Source: a virus. Taken from it: a stretch of DNA of 64,000 bases. The notes beneath the pieces are model-generated. The model was not told where the DNA came from. It saw only the letters and a program-made list of their open reading frames with translations, and searched no databases. The number at the start of each line of letters is the position of its first letter. The stretch's first letter is position 1. The position numbers and the translations under genes are program-made. This document shows positions 2,923 to 61,226 of this stretch, one piece after another. The stretch is from positions 1 to 64,000 of the IMG/VR virus record IMGVR_UViG_3300030294_000005; one strand, 5' to 3'.

Positions 2923-2960
2923 AAACTAGTATCCAAATCGGATACTAGTTTATTTTTTAT
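2923..2960. terminator. Bidirectional intrinsic terminator
   Basis: A 12-bp stem (AAACTAGTATCC, loop AAATC, GGATACTAGTTT) is followed by TATTTTTTATT on the plus strand. It lies between two convergent genes and has A-rich sequence on the other side, so it can serve both. Confidence 0.8.
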
Positions 2961-3781
2961 TAAAAATTCTTATCGCAATAATTCATTATCTCATTCTGAA
3001 TATGAGATTCAAGATTTATAACTAAAATAGAACCATTCTTATCTACAAGTTGAACTCTTCTTCCTTTATCAACAATACCTATTGATTCATATAAAAGTTC
3101 AAACGATTCTAATACATTATTAAGATTACCTGATTCCATTTTTATATAATCAATAACTGATTGATTAGTTATAGGAATTATAAGTCCTGGATCATTATTT
3201 TGTAGTAATACGTTAGTACCGCTTATACCAGCAGATTCACTAACTACTTTTGTCATATATGCAGATTCATGTGATGGATAAATTACTCTATCCCATGTTA
3301 TGATTTTTATGTTCTTTACTTCAGCACCTCTACCTGTATTTTGTATAGTACCTAAAGCTCGTAATGACCATGATGGGAATTCTCCATCCATTATGTCATC
3401 ATTAAAATCTCTACCTAAATCATTATTACAGCCTCTAACATGAGCCATTATGTTGTTGCCATCAACCCATAATTTTAAGATCTTAGAACATGTATTATTA
3501 GGATCAATTGTTTGTTGTCGTCCTATATCTTTAAGCATTGGATGCCCATTTTCATTTTTCATATTACCTGTTTTTATTAATTCAAGAATTCTTGGACTTT
3601 TAGTTTCTGGTATTAATTCTTCTCCAGCATAGAATCTTCCATTTCTATTTTTTTTATTAATATCTTGTAATATTACTTCTACTGTTAATTTATCACTTTT
3701 ATCTCCAATGATAGTTGCTTCTTTTCTTTCAGAGGCAGCAGTTTCATTTATAATAAATCCTATTTTACTATCTAACATCAT
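2960..3781 (-). CDS. Prohead core protease (T4 gp21-like serine protease)
   Basis: The 273-residue protein matches the capsid maturation proteases of myoviruses. It opens with the strand VEVILQDINKKNRNGRFY, the usual N-x-N-G-R-x-Y entry motif, has the candidate catalytic His80 in NENGHPML, and the candidate catalytic Ser139 in PSWSLRALG. In the family this enzyme cleaves the scaffold and the capsid N-terminus inside the prohead. The C-terminal 100 residues are extra and may be a targeting or pro-segment. Start ATG follows GGGAGG; two adjacent ATGs are possible. The capsid gene lies 12 kb away on the other strand. Confidence 0.75.
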   Translation of the reverse strand: MMLDSKIGFIINETAASERKEATIIGDKSDKLTVEVILQDINKKNRNGRFYAGEELIPETKSPRILELIKTGNMKNENGHPMLKDIGRQQTIDPNNTCSKILKLWVDGNNIMAHVRGCNNDLGRDFNDDIMDGEFPSWSLRALGTIQNTGRGAEVKNIKIITWDRVIYPSHESAYMTKVVSESAGISGTNVLLQNNDPGLIIPITNQSVIDYIKMESGNLNNVLESFELLYESIGIVDKGRRVQLVDKNGSILVINLESHIQNEIMNYCDKNF

Positions 3782-14294: not shown

Positions 14295-15236
14295 ATGGGA
14301 ATATATTCTAGTAAAGTAATTTTAGAAGTAAAGAAAACTGTTAAAGGAAAAACTGAAGATTTAGATAAAGATCCAGAAGATGAGCATAAAGACGATACTA
14401 CCCCTGCAACAGATTATAATATAGATGATACTGGTACTTCTAAAGATGATGATGAACCTGAAAAAGATCCAGACACTTCCGATGAAGATAATAAAGATAA
14501 TACCGATACTGATACCAATGATGATACAAATGACGAACATAAGAGTGATAGTACTTCTGCAACCGACTATAATGCAGATAGTGATACTAATAATGATAAT
14601 ACTGAAGATAATAATGATAATACTTCAGAAGATAATGATTATGATATACCTAATGATACAGACGAAAAAACAGATGATACTTCAGATAATGCTGAAGGTG
14701 ATAATGATCAATCAACAGATGCTAATGATTCTTCTACTGATTATTCAGTAGGTAATTCTGGAGAAGATAGTCAATCAGCAACTACATCTGGAGACGGTAC
14801 TGAACAAGACACAGATACTGCTGGACAAGAAGATCCAGGCGATGGGTCTGAAGATAATTTACAGGGAGGTGAAGGTGACACATCAGATTTACAAGGTTTA
14901 GAAACATCATTATTTAAAGATTTATCACAAGAGCAAATTAATATTAAAACTATGGAATTAAAAAATCAGTATTTAGAAATTTATAATGCTATTATAAATA
15001 TTATAAATAGATTAAATAGGGTTGCTAAGACCAGTGATAATATTAAGATTCTAGAATTTGTAATAAAGAAATTATTAGAGCTTAAAGATATATTATATTT
15101 CTATATGGTAAATACATTTGATACTAAAACCTATATAGAGAACTCGATAAACTATGAAGAATATTTAGCAACGTTAAATACTATGAACAAAATACTAGCT
15201 GAATTAAAATCACAGGATGGTAAGGAAAAGTCATAA
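14295..15236 (+). CDS. Acidic scaffold-like protein upstream of capsid
   Basis: A 313-residue protein in two parts. Residues 20-200 are low complexity, dominated by Asp, Asn, Thr, Ser and Glu. Residues 205-313 are a helical domain (LEIYNAIINIINRLNRVAKT, LEFVIKKLLELKDILYFYMV). It lies directly upstream of the major capsid gene, the position held by the prohead core scaffold gp22 in T4. A scaffold or core role is inferred from position and composition, not homology. The N-terminus MGIY is shared with three other proteins here. Confidence 0.55.
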   Translation: MGIYSSKVILEVKKTVKGKTEDLDKDPEDEHKDDTTPATDYNIDDTGTSKDDDEPEKDPDTSDEDNKDNTDTDTNDDTNDEHKSDSTSATDYNADSDTNNDNTEDNNDNTSEDNDYDIPNDTDEKTDDTSDNAEGDNDQSTDANDSSTDYSVGNSGEDSQSATTSGDGTEQDTDTAGQEDPGDGSEDNLQGGEGDTSDLQGLETSLFKDLSQEQINIKTMELKNQYLEIYNAIINIINRLNRVAKTSDNIKILEFVIKKLLELKDILYFYMVNTFDTKTYIENSINYEEYLATLNTMNKILAELKSQDGKEKS

Positions 15237-15360: not shown

Positions 15361-17046
15361 ATGCCAATAGTAGGAACCAGAAAAGTTTCAGACCTAGGTA
15401 GAGGATATGTAAATGATCCTATCAATACCTATGCTGCTTCTTTTAGAGATTTAGCCAAAGATATTTTAAATGAATCAGGTACTGATTTATTTACAGAGCC
15501 TTCAAAAGCTTTGCTATTACAAGGATCAAATGAAACAATGAGGAACTTCTTCGTTGAGAATTCTGCAGATCCAAAGAGTATGACTACATCAGAATATGAA
15601 GATCATATTCAAATGATGAATGAACAGTATTTAAATGATAGAGAGGCAATATTAGAGTATTCACCAGTTGGAGGATTTAACCCAGTAATAGGTATGTCTT
15701 TCCCAATTCATAAAAATATTCTAATGAACAATATCTTCGATAAAGGAGCTATTCAAAAAGTAGTAGCATCTTCACCTAAATTTACCATTTCAATGGAGAC
15801 AAGATTACTTATCACTCCAGATGGTAGAGAAATAGATATGTTTAAAAACCAGGATCAAATGACAGCAGCTATGGATGCAACAGTACCAGTTAAGGAAATT
15901 ACAGTTCCACTTCCAGAATTAGGTACTACTGATATGCTTGCTGCAATTGGAGCCGCTTCTACAGACAATTTATCTATAGAAACAAGAGTATCTTATGTAA
16001 AGATAGTTGATTCATATGAAATTGGAGACACTCTTCCTGATAAAACTGTTGCTACAGCAGCAACAACACTTGATAGATGGATTCCAACAAATCATCTTAA
16101 ATTTGCACCAAATTATGGTGGATTAGAAAGAGTTTTTGTTGAATCAGTTTCATATACAGATGTAAAAGGAATTGTTCAAGAAGATGTAATTTCTGGAGTT
16201 ATGAATAAGAATAAGATTCAAATATCCTCATTAAAAGGTCTTGTTAAAGCTGTAAAGATTTCAGCTAGAAAAGATGCTTCTAGTGCTATGCTTCAAACTT
16301 GTAGCGTATCATGGAAAGTTAAGACTGACATAGTTGAGATACCTAGTGCTATTCCAATAAATACACCAATATCTCCTGATGAAGTTAAAGATATCGGTGC
16401 TTTGTATCAGGTAAATCAATTATCAAAAATTATGAGTTTATTTAAAACAGTTCTTGAGAACTATAAAGATGATAAAATCAGACAGAGCTTGGATACTTCA
16501 TTTGAAACAATGGACCCAACTCAAAGGATTCAATCAAACTTTGACTTTGCTCCAAGATCTGGATACGCTTTGGACCATGTTGAATGGAGACATAAGACAT
16601 TCTTCGATTATCTTGATACTCATGTAACTAAGTTACTTCAGGTATTGAATGATCCTAATATGACAGTAACTGTATTTGGTAGACCTGATCTTATCAGAAA
16701 GATTACCCCAACTGAATATACTTACCAATCCCCAAGTGCTATCGGACCTGTTGAACTTGACTTTGTAAAGACAGTTACAACTTCCGATAAGAGAGTATAT
16801 CAATTTATTTCATCTCAGAAAATGAAGGGTTCAGATAATCTTATTATAGTTCTAAATCCAAGAAACACTGATAGAATTATCTATAGGATTTATGATTACC
16901 AGATGTATGTAAGTAATGAAATAAGAAATGCTCAAAACTATGCTCTTCCTGCAATCCATGCTTTTGAAAGATGGAAGTTTGTAGAATATCAGCCAGTACA
17001 GGGTCGTATGAATATACTAAACCCTACTGGATTAATAGAAGTATAA
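15361..17046 (+). CDS. Major capsid protein (T4 gp23-like, HK97 fold)
   Basis: A 561-residue protein that forms the head shell. It has features of gp23-like capsid proteins in large myoviruses: an N-terminal helical region that is usually removed by the prohead protease, a central block (GGFNPVIGMSFPIHKNILMN, then a long beta region), and a C-terminal domain with VTVFGRPDLIRKITPTEYTY and ending MNILNPTGLIEV. Codons are less AT-biased than in neighbouring genes, as expected for a very highly expressed gene. It is followed by a strong terminator. The exact cleavage site cannot be read with confidence. Confidence 0.85.
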   Translation: MPIVGTRKVSDLGRGYVNDPINTYAASFRDLAKDILNESGTDLFTEPSKALLLQGSNETMRNFFVENSADPKSMTTSEYEDHIQMMNEQYLNDREAILEYSPVGGFNPVIGMSFPIHKNILMNNIFDKGAIQKVVASSPKFTISMETRLLITPDGREIDMFKNQDQMTAAMDATVPVKEITVPLPELGTTDMLAAIGAASTDNLSIETRVSYVKIVDSYEIGDTLPDKTVATAATTLDRWIPTNHLKFAPNYGGLERVFVESVSYTDVKGIVQEDVISGVMNKNKIQISSLKGLVKAVKISARKDASSAMLQTCSVSWKVKTDIVEIPSAIPINTPISPDEVKDIGALYQVNQLSKIMSLFKTVLENYKDDKIRQSLDTSFETMDPTQRIQSNFDFAPRSGYALDHVEWRHKTFFDYLDTHVTKLLQVLNDPNMTVTVFGRPDLIRKITPTEYTYQSPSAIGPVELDFVKTVTTSDKRVYQFISSQKMKGSDNLIIVLNPRNTDRIIYRIYDYQMYVSNEIRNAQNYALPAIHAFERWKFVEYQPVQGRMNILNPTGLIEV

Positions 17047-39795: not shown

Positions 39796-41280
39796 ATGGG
39801 AATTTACAATCCTACAAATAATATAATTCATTTAAATGAACTAGCTATATTATTAGAAACGACTGGTGTAGAAAGAAAATGGAAATGTCCTTATTGTGAT
39901 TATCATGATACAAGAGAAAGATTAGTAAGTCATGTTGATGATGAACATGAAGATATGTTATCAGAAGATTATCCTGCATCAAGAGCTGTATTTAATTATA
40001 TAAATAAAAAGGATCATGGTTCTTGTATTGTATGTAAAAAAGAAACTAAATGGAATGATGAGACTTGGAGATATGAAAGATTATGCGAAATGCCAAAATG
40101 TGAGAAAGAATATATAGCTGGAATGAGAGCTAATATGGTTGGTGTATTTGGTAAAGAGAATTTATTAAATGATCCAGAACAACAAAAAAAGATGTTATCT
40201 AATAGAAAAATCTCAGGAACATATAAATTTGAAGATGGTGGTATTAGATCATACTGTGGTTCTTATGAAAAGAAATTATTAGAGTTTTATGATAAAGTTG
40301 TACGTGCTCATTCTAAAGATGTAATCACTCCTGGTCCTGTAATACAATATCAATATCAAGGAAAAACATTGAATTGGATTACTGATGTATACTATGTGCC
40401 AGCAAATCTGGTCCATGATGTAAAAGATGGTGGAGATAATCCTAACAATAGGCAAATGGATGACTATAGAGCTAAGCAAGATGCAAAAGAAGACGATATT
40501 TCTAAATTAAACAAATATAACTATATAAGATTAACTAATAATAATTTTGATCAATTACTATTGATACTTGCTGAAATAAAATATCAAATGATTGATCCGA
40601 ATAAAGAAAATAATACTGATTATATTATAAGAATAAATGAATCTGAATTAGGAGGGGCTATGCCAAATCAAAATAACCAATCAGACAATGCTTATATCAT
40701 ACCATATCTAATGGATAATTCTTTTAATATTGCTTTATCTACTGATAAGTATTTCTCTAATATGTATAAGATAAAAGATAATAAAATAGAAAAAGGATCT
40801 ATCAAAGATTTATATGAGAGTAAATATAATGTATACAAATATACTGGAGATAATTTTAAAGAAGTATATAAAAGTATATTAGAAGATTATAATAATAAAA
40901 CAAATATAGATAATAGATTCTATCTATATGAAAAAGTATGTGGGAAAAACTTATTAAGTATGGATCAATTAATATTTGATGAAAACTTAGAAGACTGTGC
41001 TGACGCATTTATTGAATCAGTATTAGATACTCAGATAAATGAAGCTACACTTATTCATCTTGCTAATAAAGAAACCCATAGTTTATTATACACAGAGTTA
41101 ACTGATATGCTAGATATAAATAGTAAGAAAAGGATATTATTCAATAATGAAAATACAAATATATTACAAGACATGAATGGATACTTTATATATAATGAAC
41201 AAAGTGATAGAAGAACAAAATCTTATGATAGTATATCATCAATACCTTATATAAATATTATGATTAATAGACTAGCTTAA
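39796..41280 (+). CDS. Putative nuclease with C2H2 finger and PD-(D/E)XK-like core
   Basis: A 494-residue protein starting at ATG 39796 (AGGAGTTG). It has a C2H2 finger (KCPYCDYHDTRERLVSHVDD then EH) near 35, further Cys pairs (CIVCKKE, CEMPKC) and then a region GGIRSYCGSYEKKLLEFYDK, LNWITDVYYVPANLVHDVKDG. The D (17 residues earlier) and D-V-K pattern fits a PD-(D/E)XK nuclease centre. The C-terminal half has no clear motif and may be a separate domain. Nuclease activity is inferred. It begins MGIYN like three other proteins here. Confidence 0.55.
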   Translation: MGIYNPTNNIIHLNELAILLETTGVERKWKCPYCDYHDTRERLVSHVDDEHEDMLSEDYPASRAVFNYINKKDHGSCIVCKKETKWNDETWRYERLCEMPKCEKEYIAGMRANMVGVFGKENLLNDPEQQKKMLSNRKISGTYKFEDGGIRSYCGSYEKKLLEFYDKVVRAHSKDVITPGPVIQYQYQGKTLNWITDVYYVPANLVHDVKDGGDNPNNRQMDDYRAKQDAKEDDISKLNKYNYIRLTNNNFDQLLLILAEIKYQMIDPNKENNTDYIIRINESELGGAMPNQNNQSDNAYIIPYLMDNSFNIALSTDKYFSNMYKIKDNKIEKGSIKDLYESKYNVYKYTGDNFKEVYKSILEDYNNKTNIDNRFYLYEKVCGKNLLSMDQLIFDENLEDCADAFIESVLDTQINEATLIHLANKETHSLLYTELTDMLDINSKKRILFNNENTNILQDMNGYFIYNEQSDRRTKSYDSISSIPYINIMINRLA

Positions 41281-44046: not shown

Positions 44047-44080
44047 AAACTAGAGATTGATTTCTCTAGTTTATTTTTTG
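44047..44080 (+). terminator. Intrinsic terminator
   Basis: A 10-bp stem, AAACTAGAGA and TCTCTAGTTT, with a 6-base loop, then ATTTTTTG. Confidence 0.8.
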
Positions 44081-44094
44081 CCAAATTTAATAAT

Positions 44095-44125
44095 AACCAT
44101 ATATTATACATATGAATAAATTTAT
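44095..44125 (+). promoter_or_regulatory. Phage promoter motif
   Basis: ATAACCATATATTATACATA then TGAATAAATTTATAAGGAG; same short-leader form as at 41306. Confidence 0.55.
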
Positions 44126-44142
44126 AAGGAGATGTTTTAATT

Positions 44143-44292: not shown

Positions 44293-44822
44293 AAGAATAT
44301 GATATTAAAAATGGATTAATAATAGTAATGCTAAATGATAAATGGGGATTAATGAATAAAGATAATGAAGAAATTATACCATGTATATATGATCATATAT
44401 TTAAATTCGAAGAAGGGATAGCTCCAGTTTCATTAAATGGTAAGATGGGGTTTATTAATACAAAAGGCGAAGAAATAATTCCATGTAAATATATATATAA
44501 TTCATATAATACTATTTTTCATGATGGGCTTTCCCCAGTAAGAGTAGATAATAAATTTGGATATATTAATAAAAAAGGTGAAGAAATAATACCATTAAAA
44601 TATGATATGGCTTGTTATTTTAGAGAAGGATTAGCATCTGTAAATCTAAATGATAAATGGGGATTTATTAATACAAAAGGTGAAGAAGTAGTACCATTGA
44701 TATATGAAAATGCATTATTTAGTTTTGATAAAAAAATATTATGTGTAAGAACAAAGAGTGGATGGGGTACTATTAATAAGGATGATATATTATTTGATAA
44801 AGAGGATGTTCTAAATGAATGA
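44289..44822 (+). CDS. WG-repeat protein 4
   Basis: A 177-residue protein with about five WG repeats (FEEGIAPVSLNGKMGFINTK then GEEIIPCKY). It overlaps the preceding mini gene by 4 bases and the next WG gene by 8, so three are translated from one message. Confidence 0.75.
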   Translation: MKEYDIKNGLIIVMLNDKWGLMNKDNEEIIPCIYDHIFKFEEGIAPVSLNGKMGFINTKGEEIIPCKYIYNSYNTIFHDGLSPVRVDNKFGYINKKGEEIIPLKYDMACYFREGLASVNLNDKWGFINTKGEEVVPLIYENALFSFDKKILCVRTKSGWGTINKDDILFDKEDVLNE

Positions 44823-45420
44823 ATTAGGATTTGTATCTACTTATCATGAAGGACTTTTTAGAACGATAAAGGATGGTAAATGGGGTTTTATTGATAAAAC
44901 TGGTAAAATAATAATACCATATAAATATGATTTTGCATATAATTTTATGAATGGAATTGCATTTGTAAAACTAAATGGTAAATGTGGATTTATTAATAAG
45001 AAAGATAAAGAAATTGTATTAATAAAATATGACGATATATCTGATTTTAATGAAAAAATATCTATAGTAAAGCTTAATGATAAGTGGGGATTAATAGATA
45101 ATCGTGGAAGAGAAATAATACCATTAAGATATGATTGGATATCTAGATTAGAAAGGGTATTTAAAATAGGAAAGGTATCTAAATTTGATGATTATATTGC
45201 AACAGTAAGGCTAGACAATAAATATGGATTAATAAATGTAAAAGGGGAGGAGATAACACCTATAAAATATGATGATGTATTTGAATTTGATAAGAATGGA
45301 TTTGCAATAGTAAAAGCAAATGATAAATTTGGAGCTATTAATAAAGAAGGCAAAGAAGTTATACCATGTGAATATGATAAAACATCTAATTTTAATGATA
45401 TGGTTAAAGGGGGATATTAA
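44815..45420 (+). CDS. WG-repeat protein 5
   Basis: A 201-residue protein with five WG repeats and one irregular spacer (LERVFKIGKVSKFDDYIATV). It overlaps the previous gene and its TAA is directly followed by the next ATG. The weak final segment (FNDMVKGGY) suggests a frame break within a longer ancestral gene. Confidence 0.75.
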   Translation: MNELGFVSTYHEGLFRTIKDGKWGFIDKTGKIIIPYKYDFAYNFMNGIAFVKLNGKCGFINKKDKEIVLIKYDDISDFNEKISIVKLNDKWGLIDNRGREIIPLRYDWISRLERVFKIGKVSKFDDYIATVRLDNKYGLINVKGEEITPIKYDDVFEFDKNGFAIVKANDKFGAINKEGKEVIPCEYDKTSNFNDMVKGGY

Positions 45421-46248
45421 ATGAAAAAATATGACTATGTATTTAGTTTTAATGATGGATTAGCAAAAGTAGTATTGAATGATAAATGGGGATTTATTAA
45501 TAAAAAAGAAGAAGAAGTAATACCATTAATATATGATATCGTATCTAAATTTAATAAAAGATTAATAGCTGTAAACATTAATAATAAATGTGGAATTATT
45601 AACAGAAAAGGTAAAATAATAATTCCATTAATATATGATAATATGTCTCAATATATTAATAATGATCATATGATAAAAGTAACACTTAATGGTGGTTGGG
45701 GATTTATCAACACTAATAATAAAGTTGTAGTCCCATTAAAATATGATGATATAAGTGAATTTAGTAAAGGGCTTTGCTCATTTAGACTGGATGAAAAATG
45801 GGGTATTATAAATAGAAGGGGTAAAGAAACAGTTTCATGTAAATATGATGATATAGATGAGTTTGAAAATGGATTAGCAGCTGTAAAACTAAATAATAAA
45901 TGGGGTGTTATTAATAAACGAGATAAAGAAATAATACCAATAAAATATGATGATATATTTAGTTTTGATAAAAAAAGACTTCTAGTAGTATTGAATAATA
46001 AATATGGATTAATTAATAGAAATGATGAAGAAATAGTTTCATGTAAATATGATTATATAGATGATTTTATTGATGGATTATCAATGGTGAAATTAAATGA
46101 TAAATTTGGATTCATTGATAGAAATGGTAAAGAAGTTATACCATTAATATATAATGAAGCACATAATTTTCATAATAAGCATACTATAGTAAAATTAAAT
46201 GATAAGTGGATATATATAAATAAAGCTGGTAAAGAAATACAATTATAA
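45421..46248 (+). CDS. WG-repeat protein 6 (longest)
   Basis: A 275-residue protein with eight WG repeats (FENGLAAVKLNNKWGVINKR and variants). Its ATG follows the previous stop with no gap; GGGGGATATTAAATG supplies the ribosome binding site. Repeats are more diverged than in the outer genes. Confidence 0.75.
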   Translation: MKKYDYVFSFNDGLAKVVLNDKWGFINKKEEEVIPLIYDIVSKFNKRLIAVNINNKCGIINRKGKIIIPLIYDNMSQYINNDHMIKVTLNGGWGFINTNNKVVVPLKYDDISEFSKGLCSFRLDEKWGIINRRGKETVSCKYDDIDEFENGLAAVKLNNKWGVINKRDKEIIPIKYDDIFSFDKKRLLVVLNNKYGLINRNDEEIVSCKYDYIDDFIDGLSMVKLNDKFGFIDRNGKEVIPLIYNEAHNFHNKHTIVKLNDKWIYINKAGKEIQL

Positions 46249-46261
46249 GGGGATGTATTAA

Positions 46262-46771
46262 ATGAAAAAATATGATGATCTAGGTAGTTTTAGTGAAGGT
46301 TTAGCTGAGATTAGATTAGGTAGTAAATGGGGGTTTATTAATAGAGAATTAGTAGAGGTTATACCATGTAAATATAGTTCTGCAGAACTTTTTAGTGAAG
46401 GTTTAGCAGTGGTATCATTAGATGGTAAATTTGGATATATAGATAAGGCTGGTAAAGAAGTTATACAGTGTAAGTATGATTATGCATATGATTTTATTGA
46501 AGGAATGGCATTAGTAAGATTAGATGATAATATAGGATATATTAATAAAGAAGGTAAAGAAGTTATATCGTTAATATATGCTAATGGTTATGAATTTTGT
46601 GGTGGCTTAGCAATAGTAGAATCAGGTTGTAGAATGGGATTTGTTGATAAAAAAGGTGAAGAAGTAATTCCATTAATATTTGATGAAGTATATGATTTCA
46701 AAGAAGATTTAGCAGTTGTAAAATTAAATGGTAAATGTTATTTCATAAATAAAGTTGGTGAAGAAATATAA
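46262..46771 (+). CDS. WG-repeat protein 7
   Basis: A 169-residue protein of five WG repeats. It is a close duplicate of the next gene: same length, same start (MKKYDDL) and the same end (LNGKCYFINKVGEEI against LNSKCYFINKAGKEI). Confidence 0.75.
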   Translation: MKKYDDLGSFSEGLAEIRLGSKWGFINRELVEVIPCKYSSAELFSEGLAVVSLDGKFGYIDKAGKEVIQCKYDYAYDFIEGMALVRLDDNIGYINKEGKEVISLIYANGYEFCGGLAIVESGCRMGFVDKKGEEVIPLIFDEVYDFKEDLAVVKLNGKCYFINKVGEEI

Positions 46772-46795
46772 TATAAAAAAGGTGGTATATATTAA

Positions 46796-47305
46796 ATGAA
46801 AAAATATGATGATCTTAATAGATTTTATGAAGGATTAGCAGAAATTAGATTGGGTGATAAATATGGATTTATTAATAAAGAATTGATAGAAGTTGTTCCA
46901 TGTAAATATGATTTCATATCTAGTTTTAGTGAGGGATTAGCAATAGTTGGATTAGATAAGAAATATGGCTTTATTAATAAAGATGGTGAAGAAGTTATAC
47001 CATTAAAATATGATTATGTGTGTGATTTTAATGAAGAACTTGCTTTAGTAAAATTGAATGATAAGATGGGATATATTAATAAAGAAGGTAAAGAAGTTAT
47101 ACCATTGATATATGATGATGTATATGATTTTCATAAAGGATTAGCCATAGTAGTATTGGATAATAAATGGGGATTTATTGATAAAGAAGGTAAAGTAATC
47201 ATATCCTTAATATATGATGAAGCATATGATTTTCATAAAGGTTTAGCAGTTGTAAGATTAAATAGTAAATGTTATTTTATAAACAAAGCTGGTAAAGAAA
47301 TATAA
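46796..47305 (+). CDS. WG-repeat protein 8
   Basis: A 169-residue protein of five WG repeats and a recent duplicate of the previous gene, including the downstream spacer (AAAAAAGGTGGTATATATTA against AAAAAAGGTGGTATGTATTA). Last WG gene of the island. Confidence 0.75.
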   Translation: MKKYDDLNRFYEGLAEIRLGDKYGFINKELIEVVPCKYDFISSFSEGLAIVGLDKKYGFINKDGEEVIPLKYDYVCDFNEELALVKLNDKMGYINKEGKEVIPLIYDDVYDFHKGLAIVVLDNKWGFIDKEGKVIISLIYDEAYDFHKGLAVVRLNSKCYFINKAGKEI

Positions 47306-49295: not shown

Positions 49296-49790
49296 ATGGG
49301 TATATACAATGTAAATAAAATTATAACTGAATCTTATGACACTAATGCTGATATAAATAAAATTATAACAAGTTTATCTAGTAAGGAAAGAGACAATCTC
49401 CTTAAGCGTCCTGGATCTATAGAACAATCATATACAACTGTATATGAAAAAATAGAAAAGGTAGATAGGGTTGTTGCAGGTTATATTAGATTAAATAAAC
49501 CAGAGGAAGGTCCAATATATTGCTTAGAGTTTGCAATACGTTCAGAGTTTAGGCATCGTGGCTTAGCATATAACATGCTAAAAGAAGCATTAGAAAGCAA
49601 TTCTAAACAACGTTTTATAATATCTCATCCAGATAATGATAATATAGGTTCTCAGAAAGTAGTAGAGAAGGCTGGATTTAAATTACTAGAAAGACAAAAA
49701 TATGTATCTATTTATCTTTATGATAAAAAGTTTCCAAATCATACAGCAAAGCAAATCTATAGTAGTATAGAAGGTGAGACTAAAGACTGA
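49296..49790 (+). CDS. GNAT-family acetyltransferase
   Basis: A 164-residue protein. After an N-terminal helical part, the acetyl-CoA binding motif LEFAIRSEFRHRGLAYNMLK has the family R/Q-x-x-G-x-A/G pattern, and the fourth motif region VVEKAGFKLLERQKYVSIYL closes the fold. Substrate unknown. It begins MGIYN, like the nuclease-type protein at 39796 and close to the multidomain GNAT protein at 53519. RBS AAAGGAG. Confidence 0.7.
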   Translation: MGIYNVNKIITESYDTNADINKIITSLSSKERDNLLKRPGSIEQSYTTVYEKIEKVDRVVAGYIRLNKPEEGPIYCLEFAIRSEFRHRGLAYNMLKEALESNSKQRFIISHPDNDNIGSQKVVEKAGFKLLERQKYVSIYLYDKKFPNHTAKQIYSSIEGETKD

Positions 49791-50566: not shown

Positions 50567-51613
50567 ATGAAAAATATATATTATGATTACCAGACTAATA
50601 ACAAAACTTTTTTAGATATGTATTCGCATCTAAAAAAATTAGGAATAACTAACAATAATTTCTTTCTTATTATTCTTAATAAAGATTTAGTAGGAGTAGA
50701 TCCTTTTAATGAAAATCTTTCTACTTCACAAAAAATTGAAATTATAGAAGAATGTAGGTTAAACTATTGGTATTTCTTAAGAGAAGTTATAAGATTTAAT
50801 TATTCGTCTTCTATTGATATTAAGCCATATATTTTAAATAGTGCAAATTTAGCATTTAATTTCTGTGTAGATATGAATATGAATATATTTTATGAATCTC
50901 CTTCTGTAGAAACTGGTAAAACAACATCAGTAATAGCACGTTTATTATGGGAATATATGTTTGCGTTAAATAGCAAATGTACTATGAGTAATAGTACGTT
51001 TAACAATGTAAAATTAAGTTTGGAATATATTAAAAAATATAAATCAATGCTTCCAATATATATACGTGATTCAGATAATATAGATATAGCTACAAGTAGA
51101 TTTGTTATAAATAAATTAAATGCAAATTGTATTAAAGTAATACCTGTTGCTAGTAGCGAAACTTCTGCAAGTAATTTAGGTAGAGGTGTATTTGGAAGAG
51201 TATTCTTAGATGAGTTTGCATTTACTCCATTTAATAAATTATTATATAAAGCAATGTGTCCATATATAGCAGAATTTAGATTGCGTGATACTAATAATAG
51301 ACATAATTATACTCCTAGTGGTATTATAATTGCTACAATGCCAGCCGATATAGCTGATGATACTGCATTATTTGCATATCAATTAGAACAAGAAGCTGTT
51401 AAATTTGATGAGTCTTGGTATGATATTAGTTATGAAAATTTACAACAATTGATTGAAAAAAACACATTAGAAATATCATTCGTACTTATAAGATTTAATT
51501 ATAAAGATTTAGGTTTAGATAAGGAATGGTTCGAATCTAGATGTAAAGATTTCAATAATGATTATAAATCTATACAAAGAGAGACTCTTCTAAACTGGGA
51601 TAATTGTAACTAA
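50567..51613 (+). CDS. Terminase large-subunit ATPase domain, no nuclease
   Basis: A 348-residue protein matching the N-terminal ATPase of gp17-like terminases: Walker A SVETGKTTS near 113-121, Walker B and catalytic Glu in RVFLDEFAF near 215, and coupling motif IIIATMPAD near 260. Full-length enzymes continue for about 200-250 residues into an RNase H-like nuclease. Here the frame stops at TAA straight after the ATPase (RETLLNWDNCN), and a terminator follows. It may be a decayed duplicate, a split subunit, or a remodelled ATPase. The start ATG follows AGGGGTGTTGGG. Confidence 0.7.
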   Translation: MKNIYYDYQTNNKTFLDMYSHLKKLGITNNNFFLIILNKDLVGVDPFNENLSTSQKIEIIEECRLNYWYFLREVIRFNYSSSIDIKPYILNSANLAFNFCVDMNMNIFYESPSVETGKTTSVIARLLWEYMFALNSKCTMSNSTFNNVKLSLEYIKKYKSMLPIYIRDSDNIDIATSRFVINKLNANCIKVIPVASSETSASNLGRGVFGRVFLDEFAFTPFNKLLYKAMCPYIAEFRLRDTNNRHNYTPSGIIIATMPADIADDTALFAYQLEQEAVKFDESWYDISYENLQQLIEKNTLEISFVLIRFNYKDLGLDKEWFESRCKDFNNDYKSIQRETLLNWDNCN

Positions 51614-53470: not shown

Positions 53471-53518
53471 GAATATTAGGTAAACATAAGGATAATATTA
53501 TATAAGGAGATGATTTAT

Positions 53519-56500
53519 ATGGGAGTTTATGATGCAACTAAATTTCATGAAATAAAAACGAATGAAAGAGAAATAGAAAAGTATAAAGTTCAATATCCTA
53601 AATTATCACATGTAAGATGTGATAAAGAAAATGAAGGAATAATACTAGATAATAATGGAGCATTTGTAGCAATTATTCAATGGGATAACAAGTCTAAATA
53701 TATAGTAGCTTTAGAAGTTGCTCCAGAGTATCGTAAAAATGGAATTGGTAAATACTTATTAAAAAAAGCCTATTCTAAAGGTATAAATAAATTATCAGTA
53801 AATAAGAGTAATACATCTGCTATAAAGTTATATATTAAGAGTGGATATAAAGAAGAAAAAACCGATAAGACTATGATATATATGATTAAAGAATCCACTA
53901 TAAATGAAAACTATTTTTTTAGTGGCGATGATATAGTATTAAATATAGAAAAATGGAAAGCAGATTCACCGAATAATATACTATATGTAACTGGATTAAG
54001 TGGTAGTGGAAAGACTACACTAGCAGCAGAATATGAAAAAAAGTATAATGCTGAAATGTTTGAAATAGATGGTTTGGAATATAGTTATGACGCATCTAAA
54101 AGTAAATTATTACAAAAAGCAAAAGATAAATATCCAGAATATGCTGAAGCATTAAAAAATGACTGGAAAGATTTAAAAGGAAATCCAGGAGTAGATTTAT
54201 TAATAAGAGTTTTATTATATGTAATTAAAGAAATGAAGGATTCTGGAAAATTATATATATTAGATGGGGTACAAATATTTCAATGGTTAGATCCTGATAC
54301 TTTAAAAAGTCAACCATTAATTATTAAAGGAACATCTATGACTAAAAGTATATATCAAAGATTTAAAAGAAATGGTGGAGATAAAATAGATTGGATTGCT
54401 GAACTACGTAATAAATTTCCACAATTGTTTAAAAGATATCTAAAAGATGAAAAGGAAGTTAGTACATTTAAAAAATCAATAAAAGAATCATATAATATAG
54501 GAGATCAATTTAGTTGGGAAACTTTTGGTGGAAACAAATATTCTGGAATAATCTCAGAAATAGATAGCAATGTTTTAATTGTTAAATTAAAAGATGGAAC
54601 ACAGAAAGCTGTTGAGATGAGAGAATCTTCTACTGCTGATACAGATGATATTAATGATTGGGAAAAGAATACTAATTCAGAATTGATTGGTGATGATTCA
54701 AACAATCTATCAGAGTTAGAGAAGGAAAAGAATAATTATGATATGCTTATTTATAAACAAAAAAGAGTAGCAGATTGGAAGAGTGAAGAATTATTTGGTA
54801 AAGATAATACTGAAAGATATGATGAATTAAAAGATAAATATTTAAAAACTATTGATAATTTTGATGATGTATATAATACTCCACAAATAAATACCGAAGC
54901 ATCTATATCATCAGCAGATGGATTTGAAATAGACGATTCTAAAGATAATGAATATACTAAATTAAGCGATGATCCAAATAATGAAGTTCCAGGATATGAT
55001 TCAGCTACTTTAAAACAAGCTATAATGTGGTGCAATAATACAATGGTAAGTATGATATTACCAGTTGGATCTTTAAAAGAATTAGAAGATTCTTATGTTA
55101 AATGGAGATCAATGACTAGAAAGCATCAAAGAGATAGTGATAATAAAAGTATAGAATTATTTGGAATGAATAATTTAGAACATTTTGATTATTTAAAATC
55201 AAAATTTATTGGTACTCAAAGTAGTGGAGATAAATCATATGATACTACATCAGTACTAGATGTGTCTGGTAAAGCAATAGAAATAGATCAGATACGAGAT
55301 GATTTAACTGCAAATGGCAATACGAATGGAAATGCAAATGGAGACATGCATGAATCATCTATGTTGGATTATGGTATATCATTATTAAGAATAAATAATA
55401 TTATAACAGAAGATATCTGTTCTAATATAGTAAAAGAAAATGCTATAAAAGATATAAAAAATAAACTTAATAACGCATATGATAAATCATATGATTCACT
55501 TCCAACACAATTACCATACTTTTCATTTAATGAAATACAATCTAGAATAGACACCTCTAACCCATACAAATATGCTGGTCTTAGTAAAGATATAAGTTTA
55601 AAAACATGGTTAGAGAGTTATTCCTTGATATGTAGTGGGATACTCGATTCTAGAATGAAAGAGTATACTCCATTATGGATAACTAAACTAGATAGTCTAT
55701 ATAGAGATTTATATAAAGCAACGGATGATACAAAGATACATCAATTAAAAGAAAATATATTATTATTAGGATGGAATCCAGAAGTTAATTTTACTTATGA
55801 AAATAGAATTAAGGCTACTGATAGATGCATGTCTATCATATCAGAGTATTATAAAGATAATTCTATAAATTTATCTCCATTAATTAATAATATAAATTTA
55901 AATAATAATGTAATAACTGAGCAAAATAAAAAAGATGAATTATATCCAATATATATATTATTATCATATACTAGTACTATTGCAGGAAAGGTAATATCAA
56001 GAGTTACAGATAGTATATATTCTCATGCTTGTTTAAGTCTTGATTCATCACTTCAAAAACTATATAGTTTTAATGCAAACGTGCATGGGTTCTCACTAGA
56101 ATCTATAACTGAGTATCTGAAGTATAATAAGAATAGTATAATACAACTCAGTTGTGTATTTGTTAAAGCTCCAGACTTATCTATTATAGAATCTGGATTA
56201 AATGATTTATTATTGAATATAAGAAATACATCATATAGCTTTTTAAATATACTTGGAATAATGTTAGACAAATCTATACAGCTAAATAATTCTATGATAT
56301 GTTCTCAATTTGTAGATTATATGTTTAAATCAATAAATGTAGATATAACTAATAAACCAAGTGGATTAGTAATGCCTAAAGATTTTCAAGTGTTAAAGAA
56401 TAATAAAGTATATAAATTATATGAAGGAAAGATAGCTGACTATAATAGTCAGAAGATTAATTCAATGATGAATGTACTAATAAAGAAAGCTATATATATA

Positions 56501-57097
56501 AAAGAGAGTTTAAATATAATAAATGAGTCACAATTTATAGACACACTATCAAAGAACTCCAATGACATTAATATTATAGCATACTTGAATCAATCACATG
56601 ATATACTGGAAGCTAGTAATCAATTAATATATAATGATTATATAGATCCATATATAAATATATCTTGCATGACTGAATCAAAAGAATTTCCAGTTCAATT
56701 TGATAAAGATGGTAATCTTCTAATTAGAAATAAGAAAAATATAGATTTTGAAGTTGAATACTCTAAAGCACATAAGCTATTAAAGATATATGATAGCACT
56801 GATAATACAGAAGGTATGAAATATGAACTATCTAAACTATGGTTTCTAAATTTATTACTAGAAGATATGATCTATACTCAAAAGAATAAAGATCCAGAAT
56901 ATTTAAAAGTAAGAGCAAGATCTTTAAATGATTTTAATAAGTATATTATTGTAGTGTCTAAACAAGATAAAGATTTTAATTTTACTGAGTACTATAATAA
57001 TACTCCATTTAGTGATGAGACAACAAAGATAAATAGTAGCACATTAAAATATACTGGAGAAATACTAGAAAAGATATTAAAACATTTAATCCATTAA
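53519..57097 (+). CDS. Giant fusion: acetyltransferase, P-loop kinase, cysteine-peptidase-like domain
   Basis: A 1,192-residue protein starting at ATG 53519 behind AAGGAGATG. In order: a GNAT acetyltransferase (VALEVAPEYRKNGIGKYLLK, about 65-120); a P-loop domain with GLSGSGKTT at 159-167 and ILDGVQ near 250, like small-molecule or zeta-toxin-type kinases; an SH3-like strand region near 330; an acidic linker; and a C-terminal permuted-papain-like domain with His in SHACLSLD near 836 and Cys in MICSQFVDYM near 928. The last 200 residues are helical. Domain set suggests a virion-packaged, injected protein. Each activity is inferred from motifs. Confidence 0.65.
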   Translation: MGVYDATKFHEIKTNEREIEKYKVQYPKLSHVRCDKENEGIILDNNGAFVAIIQWDNKSKYIVALEVAPEYRKNGIGKYLLKKAYSKGINKLSVNKSNTSAIKLYIKSGYKEEKTDKTMIYMIKESTINENYFFSGDDIVLNIEKWKADSPNNILYVTGLSGSGKTTLAAEYEKKYNAEMFEIDGLEYSYDASKSKLLQKAKDKYPEYAEALKNDWKDLKGNPGVDLLIRVLLYVIKEMKDSGKLYILDGVQIFQWLDPDTLKSQPLIIKGTSMTKSIYQRFKRNGGDKIDWIAELRNKFPQLFKRYLKDEKEVSTFKKSIKESYNIGDQFSWETFGGNKYSGIISEIDSNVLIVKLKDGTQKAVEMRESSTADTDDINDWEKNTNSELIGDDSNNLSELEKEKNNYDMLIYKQKRVADWKSEELFGKDNTERYDELKDKYLKTIDNFDDVYNTPQINTEASISSADGFEIDDSKDNEYTKLSDDPNNEVPGYDSATLKQAIMWCNNTMVSMILPVGSLKELEDSYVKWRSMTRKHQRDSDNKSIELFGMNNLEHFDYLKSKFIGTQSSGDKSYDTTSVLDVSGKAIEIDQIRDDLTANGNTNGNANGDMHESSMLDYGISLLRINNIITEDICSNIVKENAIKDIKNKLNNAYDKSYDSLPTQLPYFSFNEIQSRIDTSNPYKYAGLSKDISLKTWLESYSLICSGILDSRMKEYTPLWITKLDSLYRDLYKATDDTKIHQLKENILLLGWNPEVNFTYENRIKATDRCMSIISEYYKDNSINLSPLINNINLNNNVITEQNKKDELYPIYILLSYTSTIAGKVISRVTDSIYSHACLSLDSSLQKLYSFNANVHGFSLESITEYLKYNKNSIIQLSCVFVKAPDLSIIESGLNDLLLNIRNTSYSFLNILGIMLDKSIQLNNSMICSQFVDYMFKSINVDITNKPSGLVMPKDFQVLKNNKVYKLYEGKIADYNSQKINSMMNVLIKKAIYIKESLNIINESQFIDTLSKNSNDINIIAYLNQSHDILEASNQLIYNDYIDPYINISCMTESKEFPVQFDKDGNLLIRNKKNIDFEVEYSKAHKLLKIYDSTDNTEGMKYELSKLWFLNLLLEDMIYTQKNKDPEYLKVRARSLNDFNKYIIVVSKQDKDFNFTEYYNNTPFSDETTKINSSTLKYTGEILEKILKHLIH

Positions 57098-57103
57098 GTA
57101 CTG

Positions 57104-57138
57104 TAGTAGGGGTAACTCCCTACTATAATATTTTTTTA
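57104..57138 (+). terminator. Intrinsic terminator
   Basis: Stem TAGTAGGG and CCCTACTA with a 6-base loop, then TAATATTTTTTT. Confidence 0.75.
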
Positions 57139-58218: not shown

Positions 58219-58710
58219 ATGAAAATAATATTAGTTAAAGAAGAAAATGGTCTTTTATATGAAGTTGCAAAGATTGTCTATAAGAATAAACCTACAGGAT
58301 TTATCTTTAAACCTTCAACTCAGTTAGATATAATTGGTAAAATGATAACTGATGAAACTGATAAAGATAAGCAAGATATTATAATAAGAGATTTTAGTTA
58401 TATTAAAAATTTATTTAGTCCATTATTAGAAAAAAATAATGAGATTATTAAAAAGGATGAAAATGAAACTAGAATAAAAATAATTAATAGATATCTAGCA
58501 ATGATGGCTTGTAGATATGGTTTAACAATTATTGATTTGAATAAAGATGGAAGATATTATGAGTTACATAAAAGATACATATATAGAAGAGTTAAACCAT
58601 TTACTAGGCCAGCTATGATGCATGAAAATCTATCATATCCTATATCTGCATTAAATGAATGTATTAAAAAAAATAATGAAGCTTTTTTTGGCACTAAAAA
58701 AGTTAAATAA
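58219..58710 (+). CDS. Tandem family member 1 (MKIILVKE family)
   Basis: A 163-residue protein, first of five tandem relatives. Shared N-terminal domain: MKIILVKEENGLLYEVAKIV, YKNKP, FKPSTQLDIIGKMI, DETDKDKQ, DFSYIKNLF, then YLAMMACRYGLTIIDLNKD. About 130 residues of alpha-beta fold. The C-terminal tail is variable between members. Family unknown. Confidence 0.6.
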   Translation: MKIILVKEENGLLYEVAKIVYKNKPTGFIFKPSTQLDIIGKMITDETDKDKQDIIIRDFSYIKNLFSPLLEKNNEIIKKDENETRIKIINRYLAMMACRYGLTIIDLNKDGRYYELHKRYIYRRVKPFTRPAMMHENLSYPISALNECIKKNNEAFFGTKKVK

Positions 58711-58724
58711 GGGAGATATGTAAA

Positions 58725-59120
58725 ATGAAAATAATATTAGTTAAAGAAAAAGAAGACGGCTTTTTCTATGAAGTTGTAAAAGTTATTTATAGAAAAAAGG
58801 CTATAGGATTCACTTTTAAAGTTTCAACTAAATTAAATATATTTGGTAGAATGATAGCAGATGAGACTGATAAAGATAAGCAAAATGAAATAATAAATGA
58901 TTTTAATAATATTAAAGATATCTTTTATTCCCATATTGGAGAAGATATAGATATTGGTGAAGAAAATAAAAGTATGAAGGAAATTATTAATACATACTTA
59001 ACAAAAATAACTACTAAGTATGGTTTAATACTTATTGATTTTAAAAAAGATAAAGATTTTTATCAATGTTATAAAAAAGGTATATATAAAAGAGTTGAAC
59101 CAATTACTCAAAAAATCTAA
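58725..59120 (+). CDS. Tandem family member 2 (short)
   Basis: A 131-residue protein consisting only of the shared N-terminal domain (MKIILVKEKEDGFFYEVVKV, DETDKDKQ, LTKITTKYGLILIDFKKDKD). It defines the minimal domain. Preceded by AGGGAGATATG like the others. Confidence 0.6.
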   Translation: MKIILVKEKEDGFFYEVVKVIYRKKAIGFTFKVSTKLNIFGRMIADETDKDKQNEIINDFNNIKDIFYSHIGEDIDIGEENKSMKEIINTYLTKITTKYGLILIDFKKDKDFYQCYKKGIYKRVEPITQKI

Positions 59121-59146
59121 ATAAAGATCTAAGGGAGCATATAAAA

Positions 59147-59755
59147 ATGAAAATAATATTAGTTAAAGAAACAGAAAATGGATTCTTACATGAAGTAGTA
59201 AAGGTTGTTTATAAAGACTATCCTTCTAAATTTACTTTTAGAGGCGTGGTTCAATTACAGATAGTTGGAAAGATGATAGCTAATGAAACTGATAAAAATA
59301 AACAAAATATAATAATATCAGATTTTAGTAATATTCAAGATATACTAGGATTTTATTTAGGAAGGGATTATGATTATGATAATATCAATTCTAATAAAAA
59401 TATTAATAGAGAAGATTTGATAAGAACATATTTAGCAATGATAGCTAGTAAATATGGATTATCATTAATTGATTTGAAAAAAGATAAAGATCTTTATGAA
59501 TTATATAAAGAAGGAATTTATATAAAGAAGCAATTTAATAATGATAATAAAGGTATTAGAGATAATTTAATACCAAAATTAATATTTAGTTATAGAGTTG
59601 GTGGTATTCCAATAATGAATATTGAATATGATAAAGAAACATCGCAACGCCCTATACCTGTTTCAGCATTTGCTAATGCAAAAGAATTAGTTTATACTAT
59701 AAATCCAATTACTGGACAAAAAGCTTATTTTGCTATTAAAAATAAATCTAAATAA
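59147..59755 (+). CDS. Tandem family member 3
   Basis: A 202-residue protein: shared domain (MKIILVKETENGFLHEVVKV, NETDKNKQ, LAMIASKYGLSLIDLKKDKD) plus a 60-residue C-terminal part (RVGGIPIMNIEYDKETSQRP) unlike the other members. Confidence 0.6.
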   Translation: MKIILVKETENGFLHEVVKVVYKDYPSKFTFRGVVQLQIVGKMIANETDKNKQNIIISDFSNIQDILGFYLGRDYDYDNINSNKNINREDLIRTYLAMIASKYGLSLIDLKKDKDLYELYKEGIYIKKQFNNDNKGIRDNLIPKLIFSYRVGGIPIMNIEYDKETSQRPIPVSAFANAKELVYTINPITGQKAYFAIKNKSK

Positions 59756-59775
59756 AAATTAAGGAGATATGTAAA

Positions 59776-60492
59776 ATGAAAATAATATTAGTTAAAGAAA
59801 AAGAAGATGGTTTTTTATATGAAGTTGCAAGGATTGTCTATAAAAATAAGCCTGTAGGATTTACTTTTAAACCTTCAACTCAATTAGATGTGATTGGTAA
59901 AATGATAACTGATGAAATTGATAAAGATAAACAAAATGATATAATAGGTGACTTTAGTTGTATTAAAGATCTATTTTATTCATATTTAGGAGATGATTAT
60001 GAGATTAATAGTGAGTTTGCAAATGAGAATAGAATGCAAACAATTAGGATGTATCTATCAGTAATAGCTAATAAATATAATTTAATAATTATTGATTTGA
60101 AAAAAGATAAAGATTTTTATGAATTATATAAAAAAGGTATATATAGAAAAATTAAAACTAAACCAGTCGATTTACCCAAAGATAAGGAAGTTAAAACAAA
60201 TGCAATAAATTTAATAGATAAACTAATCACTCGCAGTCCTAAAATGGGAGGAGACCCTAGTTATACGTCAGTTAGTCTTAAGCATATACAACCACCTTTA
60301 CCAGAATATTTGATGTATAAAAAACAAGATAAAATAATAGATGATTTTATAGAAAAGGTAATAACTAGTATATATTCTTATGCAGGAATACCACCATCAT
60401 TACTTGATAATCCTATAAAACAAGATATAGTAAGTATATCAAAAAATGATATAGTTTTAGCAATGACTAAAGCTTATAAAAATGAAAATTAA
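59776..60492 (+). CDS. Tandem family member 4
   Basis: A 238-residue protein: shared domain (MKIILVKEKEDGFLYEVARI, DEIDKDKQ) plus a C-terminal part with SLKHIQPPLPEYLMYKKQ and SIYSYAGIPPSLLDNP. The same C-terminal type occurs in member 5. Confidence 0.6.
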   Translation: MKIILVKEKEDGFLYEVARIVYKNKPVGFTFKPSTQLDVIGKMITDEIDKDKQNDIIGDFSCIKDLFYSYLGDDYEINSEFANENRMQTIRMYLSVIANKYNLIIIDLKKDKDFYELYKKGIYRKIKTKPVDLPKDKEVKTNAINLIDKLITRSPKMGGDPSYTSVSLKHIQPPLPEYLMYKKQDKIIDDFIEKVITSIYSYAGIPPSLLDNPIKQDIVSISKNDIVLAMTKAYKNEN

Positions 60493-60506
60493 GGGAGATA
60501 TGTAAA

Positions 60507-61226
60507 ATGAAATTAATATTAGTTAAAGAAAAAGAAGATGGTTTTTTATATGAAACTGCAAAGATTGTCTATAAGAATAAACCTATAGGTTTTGTTTTTA
60601 AAGTTTCAATTGAATTAAGTGTTGTAGGAAGAATGATAGCAGATGAAATTAATAAAACTAATCAAACTAGAATAATAGATGATTTTAATTATATTAAAGA
60701 TGTATTACATGATTATTCAAAAACAGATGATGGTGATATAATTATTGGAAATATTAGAACTCTTATAATTACTAGGTATTTGGAATTTATAGCTAATAAA
60801 TATGGATTAGTATTGATTAATTTAAACAAAGATAAAAAAATCTATCAATTATATAAAAAAGGTATATATAAAAAAGGCAAGATTAATCCAATTGATTGTT
60901 TTAAAGATGAAGAAGTTAGAAAAAATACAGTAGATTTAATAAATAAGAAAGTTATTCGTAATCCTAAAATAGAAACTGGGCCTAGTTATATTAGTAAAAT
61001 AGATCCCGCTTCTATATTATCAACTAATCTTAAGTATATACAACCTTCACTTGAGCACATGTATGAAAATACTAATCTTTCAGATGATATGATTAAGAAT
61101 ATATATTCTTATATTGGAATACCTCAACCAATACTTGATGATATTAAAAAAGGGAAGGATTATTCATATTCTATTGATACACTTTCAGATGAAATAAAAC
61201 AATGTATAACAAATTTACCACAATGA
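60507..61226 (+). CDS. Tandem family member 5
   Basis: A 239-residue protein: shared domain (MKLILVKEKEDGFLYETAKI) plus a C-terminal part with YISKIDPASILSTNLKYIQP and NIYSYIGIPQPILDD, related to member 4. It is the most complete long form. Confidence 0.6.
   Translation: MKLILVKEKEDGFLYETAKIVYKNKPIGFVFKVSIELSVVGRMIADEINKTNQTRIIDDFNYIKDVLHDYSKTDDGDIIIGNIRTLIITRYLEFIANKYGLVLINLNKDKKIYQLYKKGIYKKGKINPIDCFKDEEVRKNTVDLINKKVIRNPKIETGPSYISKIDPASILSTNLKYIQPSLEHMYENTNLSDDMIKNIYSYIGIPQPILDDIKKGKDYSYSIDTLSDEIKQCITNLPQ

What the first reader, a model, noticed from the sequence alone, without database searches (positions are those of the whole stretch)
53519..57097. Multidomain protein joining acetyltransferase, P-loop kinase and papain-like domains
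One 1,192-residue chain carries a GNAT motif, a GLSGSGKTT P-loop, an SH3-like segment, an acidic linker and a His/Cys pair in contexts typical of permuted NlpC/P60-like peptidases. This combination resembles bacterial polyvalent effectors delivered with DNA. It may enter the cell with the genome and modify host targets.
Basis: partly seen in the sequence, partly recalled or inferred. Interest (0 to 1): 0.75.

Follow-up and report, generated by a model that had tools for sequence, protein, structure and literature searches.

The report
Phage head-protease-cut effector precursor
A giant phage seems to make several host-attacking enzymes as one long chain that its own capsid-assembly protease is predicted to cut apart inside the new virus particle, a packaging trick like that of animal-virus polyproteins but not described before, as far as I could find, for proteins a phage carries in its head.

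Summary
In detail: one 1,192-residue late gene (53519-57097) joins a RimI-like GNAT, a P-loop kinase, a small beta (SH3-like) segment, an acidic repeat region, a helical region, a permuted papain-like (YiiX/C92) domain with invariant His839/Cys931, and a helical C-terminal domain. The effector reading is supported but incomplete. Between the modules lie [ILMV]xE|[S/A/G] motifs, the T4-gp21-type prohead-protease consensus. The phage encodes that S77 protease (2960-3781), and the same motif occurs in its capsid and internal head proteins. In 30 homologues the motif is enriched over shuffled sequence (123 against 38), its mirror image is not, and it sits at module edges (49%) rather than inside modules (10%). 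The same modules recur, reshuffled between such sites, in a neighbouring endonuclease polyprotein and inside the virion RNA polymerase beta subunit. The gene has an AR9-type late promoter and an N-terminal MG[IV]Y leader otherwise found in this genome only on head/core proteins and two other cargo candidates. Best reading: a capsid-targeted precursor of several injected effectors, cut by the head protease during assembly. It has no proteomic proof yet. New variant of polyvalent proteins / T4-type internal proteins.

The parts
53483..53494 (+). AR9-type late promoter AACA-N6-TA
   Evidence: AACATAAGGATA 27 nt upstream of ORF; motif before 65 of 257 genes vs ~15 in shuffles and in shifted/permuted controls; consensus from PMC5312081
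53432..53461 (+). terminator of the preceding gene
   Evidence: 12-pair hairpin plus T run
53519..57097 (+). effector precursor (polyprotein) gene, 1192 aa from ATG 53519 (1195 aa from 53510)
53519..53893 (+). fragment 1: MGVYD leader + RimI-like GNAT (residues 4-128)
   Evidence: Pfam GNAT above cut-off; NCBIfam rimI 3.9e-10, below cut-off; leader
53885..53896 (+). predicted site IKE128|S129
   Evidence: motif [ILMV]xE[SAG]; lies in low-pLDDT linker
53894..54487 (+). fragment 2: P-loop kinase (129-326), GLSGSGKTT at 53993-54019
54479..54490 (+). predicted site IKE326|S327
54488..54625 (+). fragment 3: small beta / SH3-like module (327-372)
   Evidence: three predicted strands, low confidence; 51%-identical stretch in phage G
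54617..54628 (+). predicted site MRE372|S373
54626..55354 (+). fragment 4: acidic linker with two copies of a DxKSxELFGxxNxxxYxxLK repeat
   Evidence: repeats at ~425 and ~547; shared by relatives
55346..55357 (+). predicted site MHE615|S616
55355..56506 (+). fragment 5: helical region + permuted papain-like (YiiX/C92) domain, His839 at 56024-56026, Cys931 at 56300-56302
56498..56530 (+). predicted sites IKE999|S1000 and INE1006|S1007
   Evidence: equivalent linker carries a site in most homologues
56603..56614 (+). possible extra site ILE1034|A1035
   Evidence: motif match, not in a low-confidence segment
56669..56680 (+). predicted site MTE1056|S1057
   Evidence: equivalent FGEA/VLEA/VEEA/VKEA in homologues
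56678..57094 (+). fragment 6: conserved helical C-terminal domain
57102..57127 (+). terminator after the gene
   Evidence: 11-pair hairpin plus T7
2960..3781 (-). S77 (T4 gp21-type) prohead protease, the proposed processing enzyme
   Evidence: PF03420 E=1.2e-11, PHROG head maturation protease 3.5e-20
15361..17046 (+). major capsid protein with ILNE|S near the N-terminus
   Evidence: phrog_20655; xE conserved at the aligned site in 25 relatives, hydrophobic at P3 in nearly all
39796..41280 (+). companion cargo: zinc-finger endonuclease-like protein with MGIYN leader, same promoter, several motif sites
   Evidence: phrog_15137 6e-42; adjacent to the homologous gene in many relatives
49296..49790 (+). 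companion cargo: stand-alone GNAT with MGIYN leader and IITE|S
   Evidence: Pfam GNAT
14295..15236 (+). MGIYS-leader acidic protein next to the capsid gene (core/scaffold-like)

Best explanation
The gene encodes a late-expressed precursor that is taken into the prohead core through its N-terminal MGVYD leader. During head maturation the phage's S77 protease cuts it after Glu at [ILMV]xE|[S/A/G] sites in the linkers. This releases a GNAT (~14 kDa), a P-loop kinase (~22 kDa), a small beta module (~5 kDa), the acidic repeat region (~27 kDa), a helical + permuted papain-like amidase (~43 kDa) and a C-terminal helical domain (~16 kDa). The fragments leave with the DNA and act on host proteins, nucleotides or defence components in the first minutes of infection. 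Shown here by sequence: domains, sites and their specificity, late promoter, leader, protease gene, reshuffling of modules at sites. Inferred: actual cleavage, packaging, injection, host targets.
For: (1) [ILM]xE[SA] occurs 123 times in 30 family members vs 37.8 +/- 6.5 in shuffles; mirror motif 27; D, Q or K instead of E not enriched. (2) Same P3/P1/P1' preferences in this group's head proteins, none in cytosolic phage proteins: 10.3 and 9.0 vs 3.25 sites per 1000 aa. (3) Motif within 20 aa of 95/192 module edges vs 26/250 interior windows (p=5e-20), mirror 22/192 vs 17/250. (4) S77 protease in every P0001-homologue-bearing relative genome searched; T4 gp21, same family, cuts after L/I-X-E (PMC9026906); capsid proteins of all relatives carry an xE site at the aligned place. 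(5) Leader MG[IV]Y/MSVY in only 6 of 246 ORFs: two internal head proteins, the scaffold-like gene and three cargo genes. (6) AR9-type late promoter and own terminators. (7) Kinase, GNAT, NUDIX and phosphoesterase modules also sit in the N-terminal part of the homologue of phiKZ gp178, taken as virion RNAP beta. (8) Fusobacterium phage has the papain-like domain alone, starting with a leader ending IAE|S, beside the endonuclease gene; bacterial homologues lack leader and site.
Against: No virion proteomics exists for this metagenomic phage. Within P0001 alone the sites' preference for low-confidence linkers is not significant (7/10 vs 31/68 other Glu, p=0.19). One site (IIE894|S) lies inside the folded papain domain and LYE972|G looks structural. 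The leader of P0001 itself lacks a good site (FHE|I). Family members are related, so counts are not independent. [quoted passage not shown]
Confidence: 0.75

Rival explanations
1. A classical polyvalent protein: one uncut multidomain effector, packaged and injected whole.
For: Disparate enzymatic domains in one chain, as defined in PMC5512222; N4 vRNAP-like precedents are packaged unprocessed.
Against: Strong, P1/P1'-specific enrichment of head-protease motifs at module edges; S77 protease encoded.
Confidence: 0.12
2. The papain-like domain itself cuts the chain (autoprocessing polyprotein, picornavirus style).
For: It is a cysteine-peptidase-like fold with intact His/Cys; autoprocessing by embedded metallopeptidases was proposed for polyvalent proteins.
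Against: The same sites occur in capsid and internal head proteins and in endonuclease polyproteins that lack the papain domain; bacterial homologues have no such sites.
Confidence: 0.06
3. The papain-like domain is a cell-wall or tail lysin used for entry and the other domains are passengers.
For: NlpC/P60 relatives are often tail lysins in jumbo phages (PMC7824862).
Against: Nearest folds are permuted YiiX/C92 amidases; no tail or wall-binding domain found; leader and sites are head-type.
Confidence: 0.05
4. Motif enrichment is a by-product of linker composition or shared ancestry and the protein is an intracellular late protein.
For: AT-rich genome rich in E, S, I, N; homologues are not independent; P0001-only test is modest for the broader motif (p=0.007).
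Against: Mirror motif and P1 substitutions are not enriched; cytosolic proteins show no excess; leader and vRNAP fusions are independent lines.
Confidence: 0.05

Closest known systems
Polyvalent proteins (Iyer et al. 2017, PMC5512222)
   Same: Several unrelated enzymatic domains, including RimI-like GNATs, in one chain predicted to be injected with DNA; domain shuffling.
   Different: There processing was proposed to be by embedded zincin metallopeptidases or a C-terminal assemblin-like peptidase in cis; here many linker sites fit the separate S77 prohead protease in trans, and none of the hub zincin domains was seen.
T4 internal proteins IPI-III and Alt
   Same: Short N-terminal capsid-targeting leader, gp21-type L/I-X-E cleavage, diverse anti-host cargo; gp22/gp67 are cut into several fragments.
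   Different: T4 cargo proteins are single units; here several enzymes are strung together between sites.
phiKZ/SPN3US inner-body (ejection) proteins
   Same: Jumbo-phage head proteins cut after Glu by an S77/S80-type protease and ejected.
   Different: Those lose propeptides; no effector arrays were reported in the papers read.
YiiX/3kw0 permuted papain-like peptidases (MEROPS C92 type)
   Same: Fold and His-then-Cys order.
   Different: Stand-alone in bacteria; here embedded between protease sites.
AR9/PBS1 virion RNAP beta subunit with HD nuclease fusion (PMC7598289)
   Same: An extra enzymatic domain fused to an injected RNAP subunit.
   Different: Here several interchangeable modules also found in P0001-type chains.

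Membership tests
Polyvalent proteins | two or more domains of disparate biochemical activity in one chain | tested here: met
   GNAT + P-loop kinase + permuted papain-like
Polyvalent proteins | packaged and injected with DNA | not testable with these tools
   only indirect: leader, late promoter, head-protease sites, vRNAP fusions
Polyvalent proteins | typical hub domains (zincin MPTase, ART, ParB-like) | tested here: not met
   no such domain by Pfam or PHROGs; MPTase is common but not obligatory in the class, so the claim made here is 'works like', not 'is a typical member'
S77 prohead-protease substrate | L/I-X-E cleavage motifs at exposed linkers | tested here: met
   consensus from PMC9026906
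S77 prohead-protease substrate | cognate protease in the same phage | tested here: met
S77 prohead-protease substrate | demonstrated cleavage | not testable with these tools
   needs mass spectrometry
T4-type capsid-targeted internal protein | short N-terminal targeting leader shared with core proteins | tested here: met
   6 of 246 ORFs, all head/core or cargo; targeting function itself untested
T4-type capsid-targeted internal protein | leader ends in a cleavage site | tested here: inconclusive
   clear in GNAT 49296 (IITE|S), head protein 69600 and G010 (FNE|A), but only FHE|I in P0001
Permuted papain-like (YiiX/C92) | His motif before Cys motif, both invariant | tested here: met
   H839, C931
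Permuted papain-like (YiiX/C92) | fold | tested here: met
   Foldseek 3kw0 E=4e-5, 2if6 E=4e-3, probability 1.0
Permuted papain-like (YiiX/C92) | amidase/peptidase activity | not testable with these tools
   needs a biochemical assay
NlpC/P60 tail or wall lysin | tail or wall-binding context | tested here: not met
   no such domain; head-type leader and sites

The most novel reading that the evidence does not exclude
A whole group of jumbo phages uses its head-maturation protease as a cargo-release enzyme: interchangeable effector modules are inserted between xE|S sites in at least three carrier chains (endonuclease carrier, papain carrier, virion RNAP beta carrier), making a swappable payload system, with site-to-site recombination as the way new effectors are gained.
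Probability: 0.6. Interest if true: 0.85.

Novelty: new variant of a known kind. Interest (0 to 1): 0.75.

Why it matters
It would give DNA phages a true polyprotein strategy for delivering many anti-host enzymes in fixed ratio, explain how large cargo is accommodated in and leaves a capsid, and give a simple sequence rule (head-protease sites plus MGxY leader) for finding the injected effectors of uncultured giant phages, most of which are annotated as hypothetical. The modules found (GNAT, kinase, NUDIX, transglutaminase/glutamine-deamidase-like, phosphoesterase, endonuclease, permuted papain) would be ready candidates for early takeover or counter-defence.

Tried and rejected
Whole-protein tblastn against isolated phages found nothing; only the papain part has weak hits. 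Single-sequence scans of IMG/VR returned only a near-identical contig; the profile scans worked. The PHROG label 'enoyl-CoA hydratase' (phrog_1128, phage G gp212) was rejected as a misannotation: that protein has the papain His/Cys motifs. A first shuffle test was run on the wrong ORF by a name clash and was redone. Sites within P0001 vs low-pLDDT linkers: not significant on its own. The exact word AACATAAN3TA is not more frequent than in reversed sequence; the spaced AR9 consensus upstream of genes is. Full-length AlphaFold gave a poor GNAT and no confident kinase match. The transcript class of P0001 is inferred from the promoter only. IIE894|S and LYE972|G are judged not to be cut.

Full report
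WHAT IS THERE. The window is the first 64 kb of a 236-kb virus record. The genome has a jumbo-phage core: a major capsid protein related to phiR1-37, Listeria LPJP1 and Staphylococcus jumbo phages, multisubunit RNA polymerase, TerL at 213489-215621 and an S77 prohead protease at 2960-3781 minus strand (PF03420 E=1.2e-11; PHROG head maturation protease). It stands alone between two terminators.

DOMAINS. GNAT residues 4-128 (closest NCBIfam model rimI, below its cut-off). P-loop kinase 129-326, weakly APS-kinase/AAA_33-like, with GLSGSGK(T/S)T, an aspartate and IIKGTS motifs conserved in relatives. A ~46-residue beta module resembling a 68-aa frame in phage G. An acidic region with two copies of a DxKSxELFGxxNxxxYxxLK repeat, shared with relatives. 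A helical region plus papain-like domain: H839 and C931 are invariant, a profile search finds PDB 3kw0 at 1e-10, the model (pLDDT 88) matches 3kw0 and YiiX, and viral matches are named permuted papain-like amidase, YaeF/YiiX, C92. Last, a conserved helical C-terminal domain.

THE LINKERS. Eight [ILM]xES motifs occur in P0001 against 1.5 expected from shuffling: IKE128|S, IKE326|S, MRE372|S, MHE615|S, IIE894|S, IKE999|S, INE1006|S, MTE1056|S. All but IIE894 fall between modules. The motif is the consensus of the T4 gp21 protease family, cut after L/I-X-E (PMC9026906); phiKZ and SPN3US relatives also cut after Glu (PMC5694885). In this phage group the capsid protein has an xE at the same aligned N-terminal place in all relatives, usually [IL]xE, and internal-head-protein-like genes at 67-74 kb and the 880-aa gene at 11590 are dense in the motif (weak phiKZ_IP matches).

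STATISTICS. A profile scan gave 35 viral loci; with other relatives this makes 30 distinct homologues of the C-terminal half. In them [ILM]xE[SA] occurs 123 times against 37.8 (sd 6.5) in shuffles; the mirror motif [SA]Ex[ILM] occurs 27 times; replacing E by D, Q or K removes the excess; P1' S, A and G are favoured. Head proteins of the group show the same P3/P1/P1' preferences and cytosolic phage proteins do not (10.3, 9.0 and 3.25 sites per 1000 aa). Around 96 non-redundant module instances, 95 of 192 edges have the motif within 20 residues against 26 of 250 interior windows (Fisher p=5e-20), mirror 22/192 and 17/250. The conserved C-terminal domain, which should need no site at its end, has 0 of 18 there. 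Caveat: homologues share ancestry, so these p-values overstate independence, and the motif was noticed in P0001 before it was tested. Within P0001 alone the link between sites and low-pLDDT segments is not significant.

MODULE SHUFFLING. BLAST hits of P0001 in relatives begin and end near the predicted sites and lie in other large ORFs. Examples: endonuclease-kinase-kinase; kinase-endonuclease; endonuclease-transglutaminase-like-kinase-GEIHN-GNAT; leader domain-kinase-three GNATs; and a 1879-aa chain with endonuclease, kinase, glutamine-deamidase/transglutaminase-like, NUDIX and GNAT domains. In most relatives an endonuclease-type gene lies directly upstream of the papain-type gene; in the window the two (39796 and 53519) are about 12 kb apart but both carry the MGxY leader and nearly the same promoter. 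In Fusobacterium phage JD-Fnp4 the two are separate neighbouring genes and the papain protein begins MSILKEIAE|S. Bacterial relatives of the papain domain start directly at the domain without leader or site; the one exception with a leader, a Herbinix MAG contig, comes from a genome bin that also holds a related jumbo-phage capsid gene.

LINK TO THE VIRION. The same kinase, GNAT, NUDIX and phosphoesterase modules are inserted in the N-terminal part of a large RNAP beta subunit (98537-103780 here; 1984 aa and 2443 aa in relatives). Its C-terminal part aligns with phiKZ gp178 (PHIKZ178) and with proteins annotated as virion-associated RNAP beta. That gp178 is a virion RNAP subunit is from my own knowledge; that one RNAP set of these phages is packaged and must be injected is from PMC7598289, which also reports an HD nuclease fused to the AR9-type virion RNAP subunit. 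The leader M[GS][IV]Y occurs in 6 of 246 ORFs of at least 100 aa here: two internal head proteins, an acidic protein beside the capsid gene, the endonuclease, a GNAT and P0001. T4 internal proteins use a 10-residue N-terminal targeting sequence in which residues 4 and 7 matter most. The gene has an AACA-N6-TA promoter; that motif lies before 65 of 257 genes against about 15 expected and is the AR9 late consensus (PMC5312081), although some early/middle-type genes have it too.

MECHANISM. Late synthesis; co-assembly into the prohead core through the leader; cutting after Glu by the S77 protease during maturation; DNA packaging; ejection of the freed modules with the DNA; action in the host. Sequence evidence supports the first three steps; ejection and action are inferred from the virion RNAP link and from T4 and phiKZ precedents. 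Substrates are unknown: the GNAT could acetylate host protein N-termini or lysines, the papain-like domain could cut amide or isopeptide bonds, and the kinase resembles small-molecule or polynucleotide kinases.

NOVELTY. The nearest concept, polyvalent proteins, already compares such chains with polyproteins but proposes cutting by peptidases embedded in the chain (PMC5512222). P1 DarA and the T4 and phiKZ internal proteins lose propeptides to the head protease. I found no report of several enzymes released from one chain by the head protease in trans (searches, open-access papers only). Hence: new variant of a known kind.

Noticed in passing
50567-51613: A 348-aa truncated paralogue of the large terminase lies near the finding although the full TerL is at 213489-215621 of the record.
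   Followed up: partly
42251-47305: Tandem family of WG-repeat (KYGYINxxGEEVIPxxYD) proteins in six or more consecutive genes, inserted between the endonuclease cargo gene and P0001.
   Followed up: no
58219-61226: Five tandem paralogues beginning MK(I/L)ILVKE, function unknown, shortly after the dCTP deaminase gene.
   Followed up: no
98537-103780 of the record; L192:7668-14999; L074:12616-18570: Virion-RNAP-beta-like subunit with interchangeable effector modules (DUF6582, kinase, GNAT, NUDIX, phosphoesterase) in its N-terminal part.
   Followed up: partly
whole record, e.g. 53483, 39759, 57149: AR9-type late promoter AACA-N6-TA upstream of about a quarter of the genes, suggesting an AR9-like non-virion RNAP.
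   Followed up: yes
67152-74251 of the record: Cluster of minus-strand internal-head-protein-like genes with very dense protease motifs and, in two of them, M[GS]VY leaders.
   Followed up: partly
L016:6013-6486 (phage G gp212) and phrog_1128: Annotated 'enoyl-CoA hydratase/carnithine racemase-like' but carries the permuted papain His/Cys motifs; looks like a propagated misannotation.
   Followed up: partly
L159:913-6552: 1879-aa chain with endonuclease, kinase, glutamine-deamidase/transglutaminase-like, NUDIX and two GNAT domains.
   Followed up: partly
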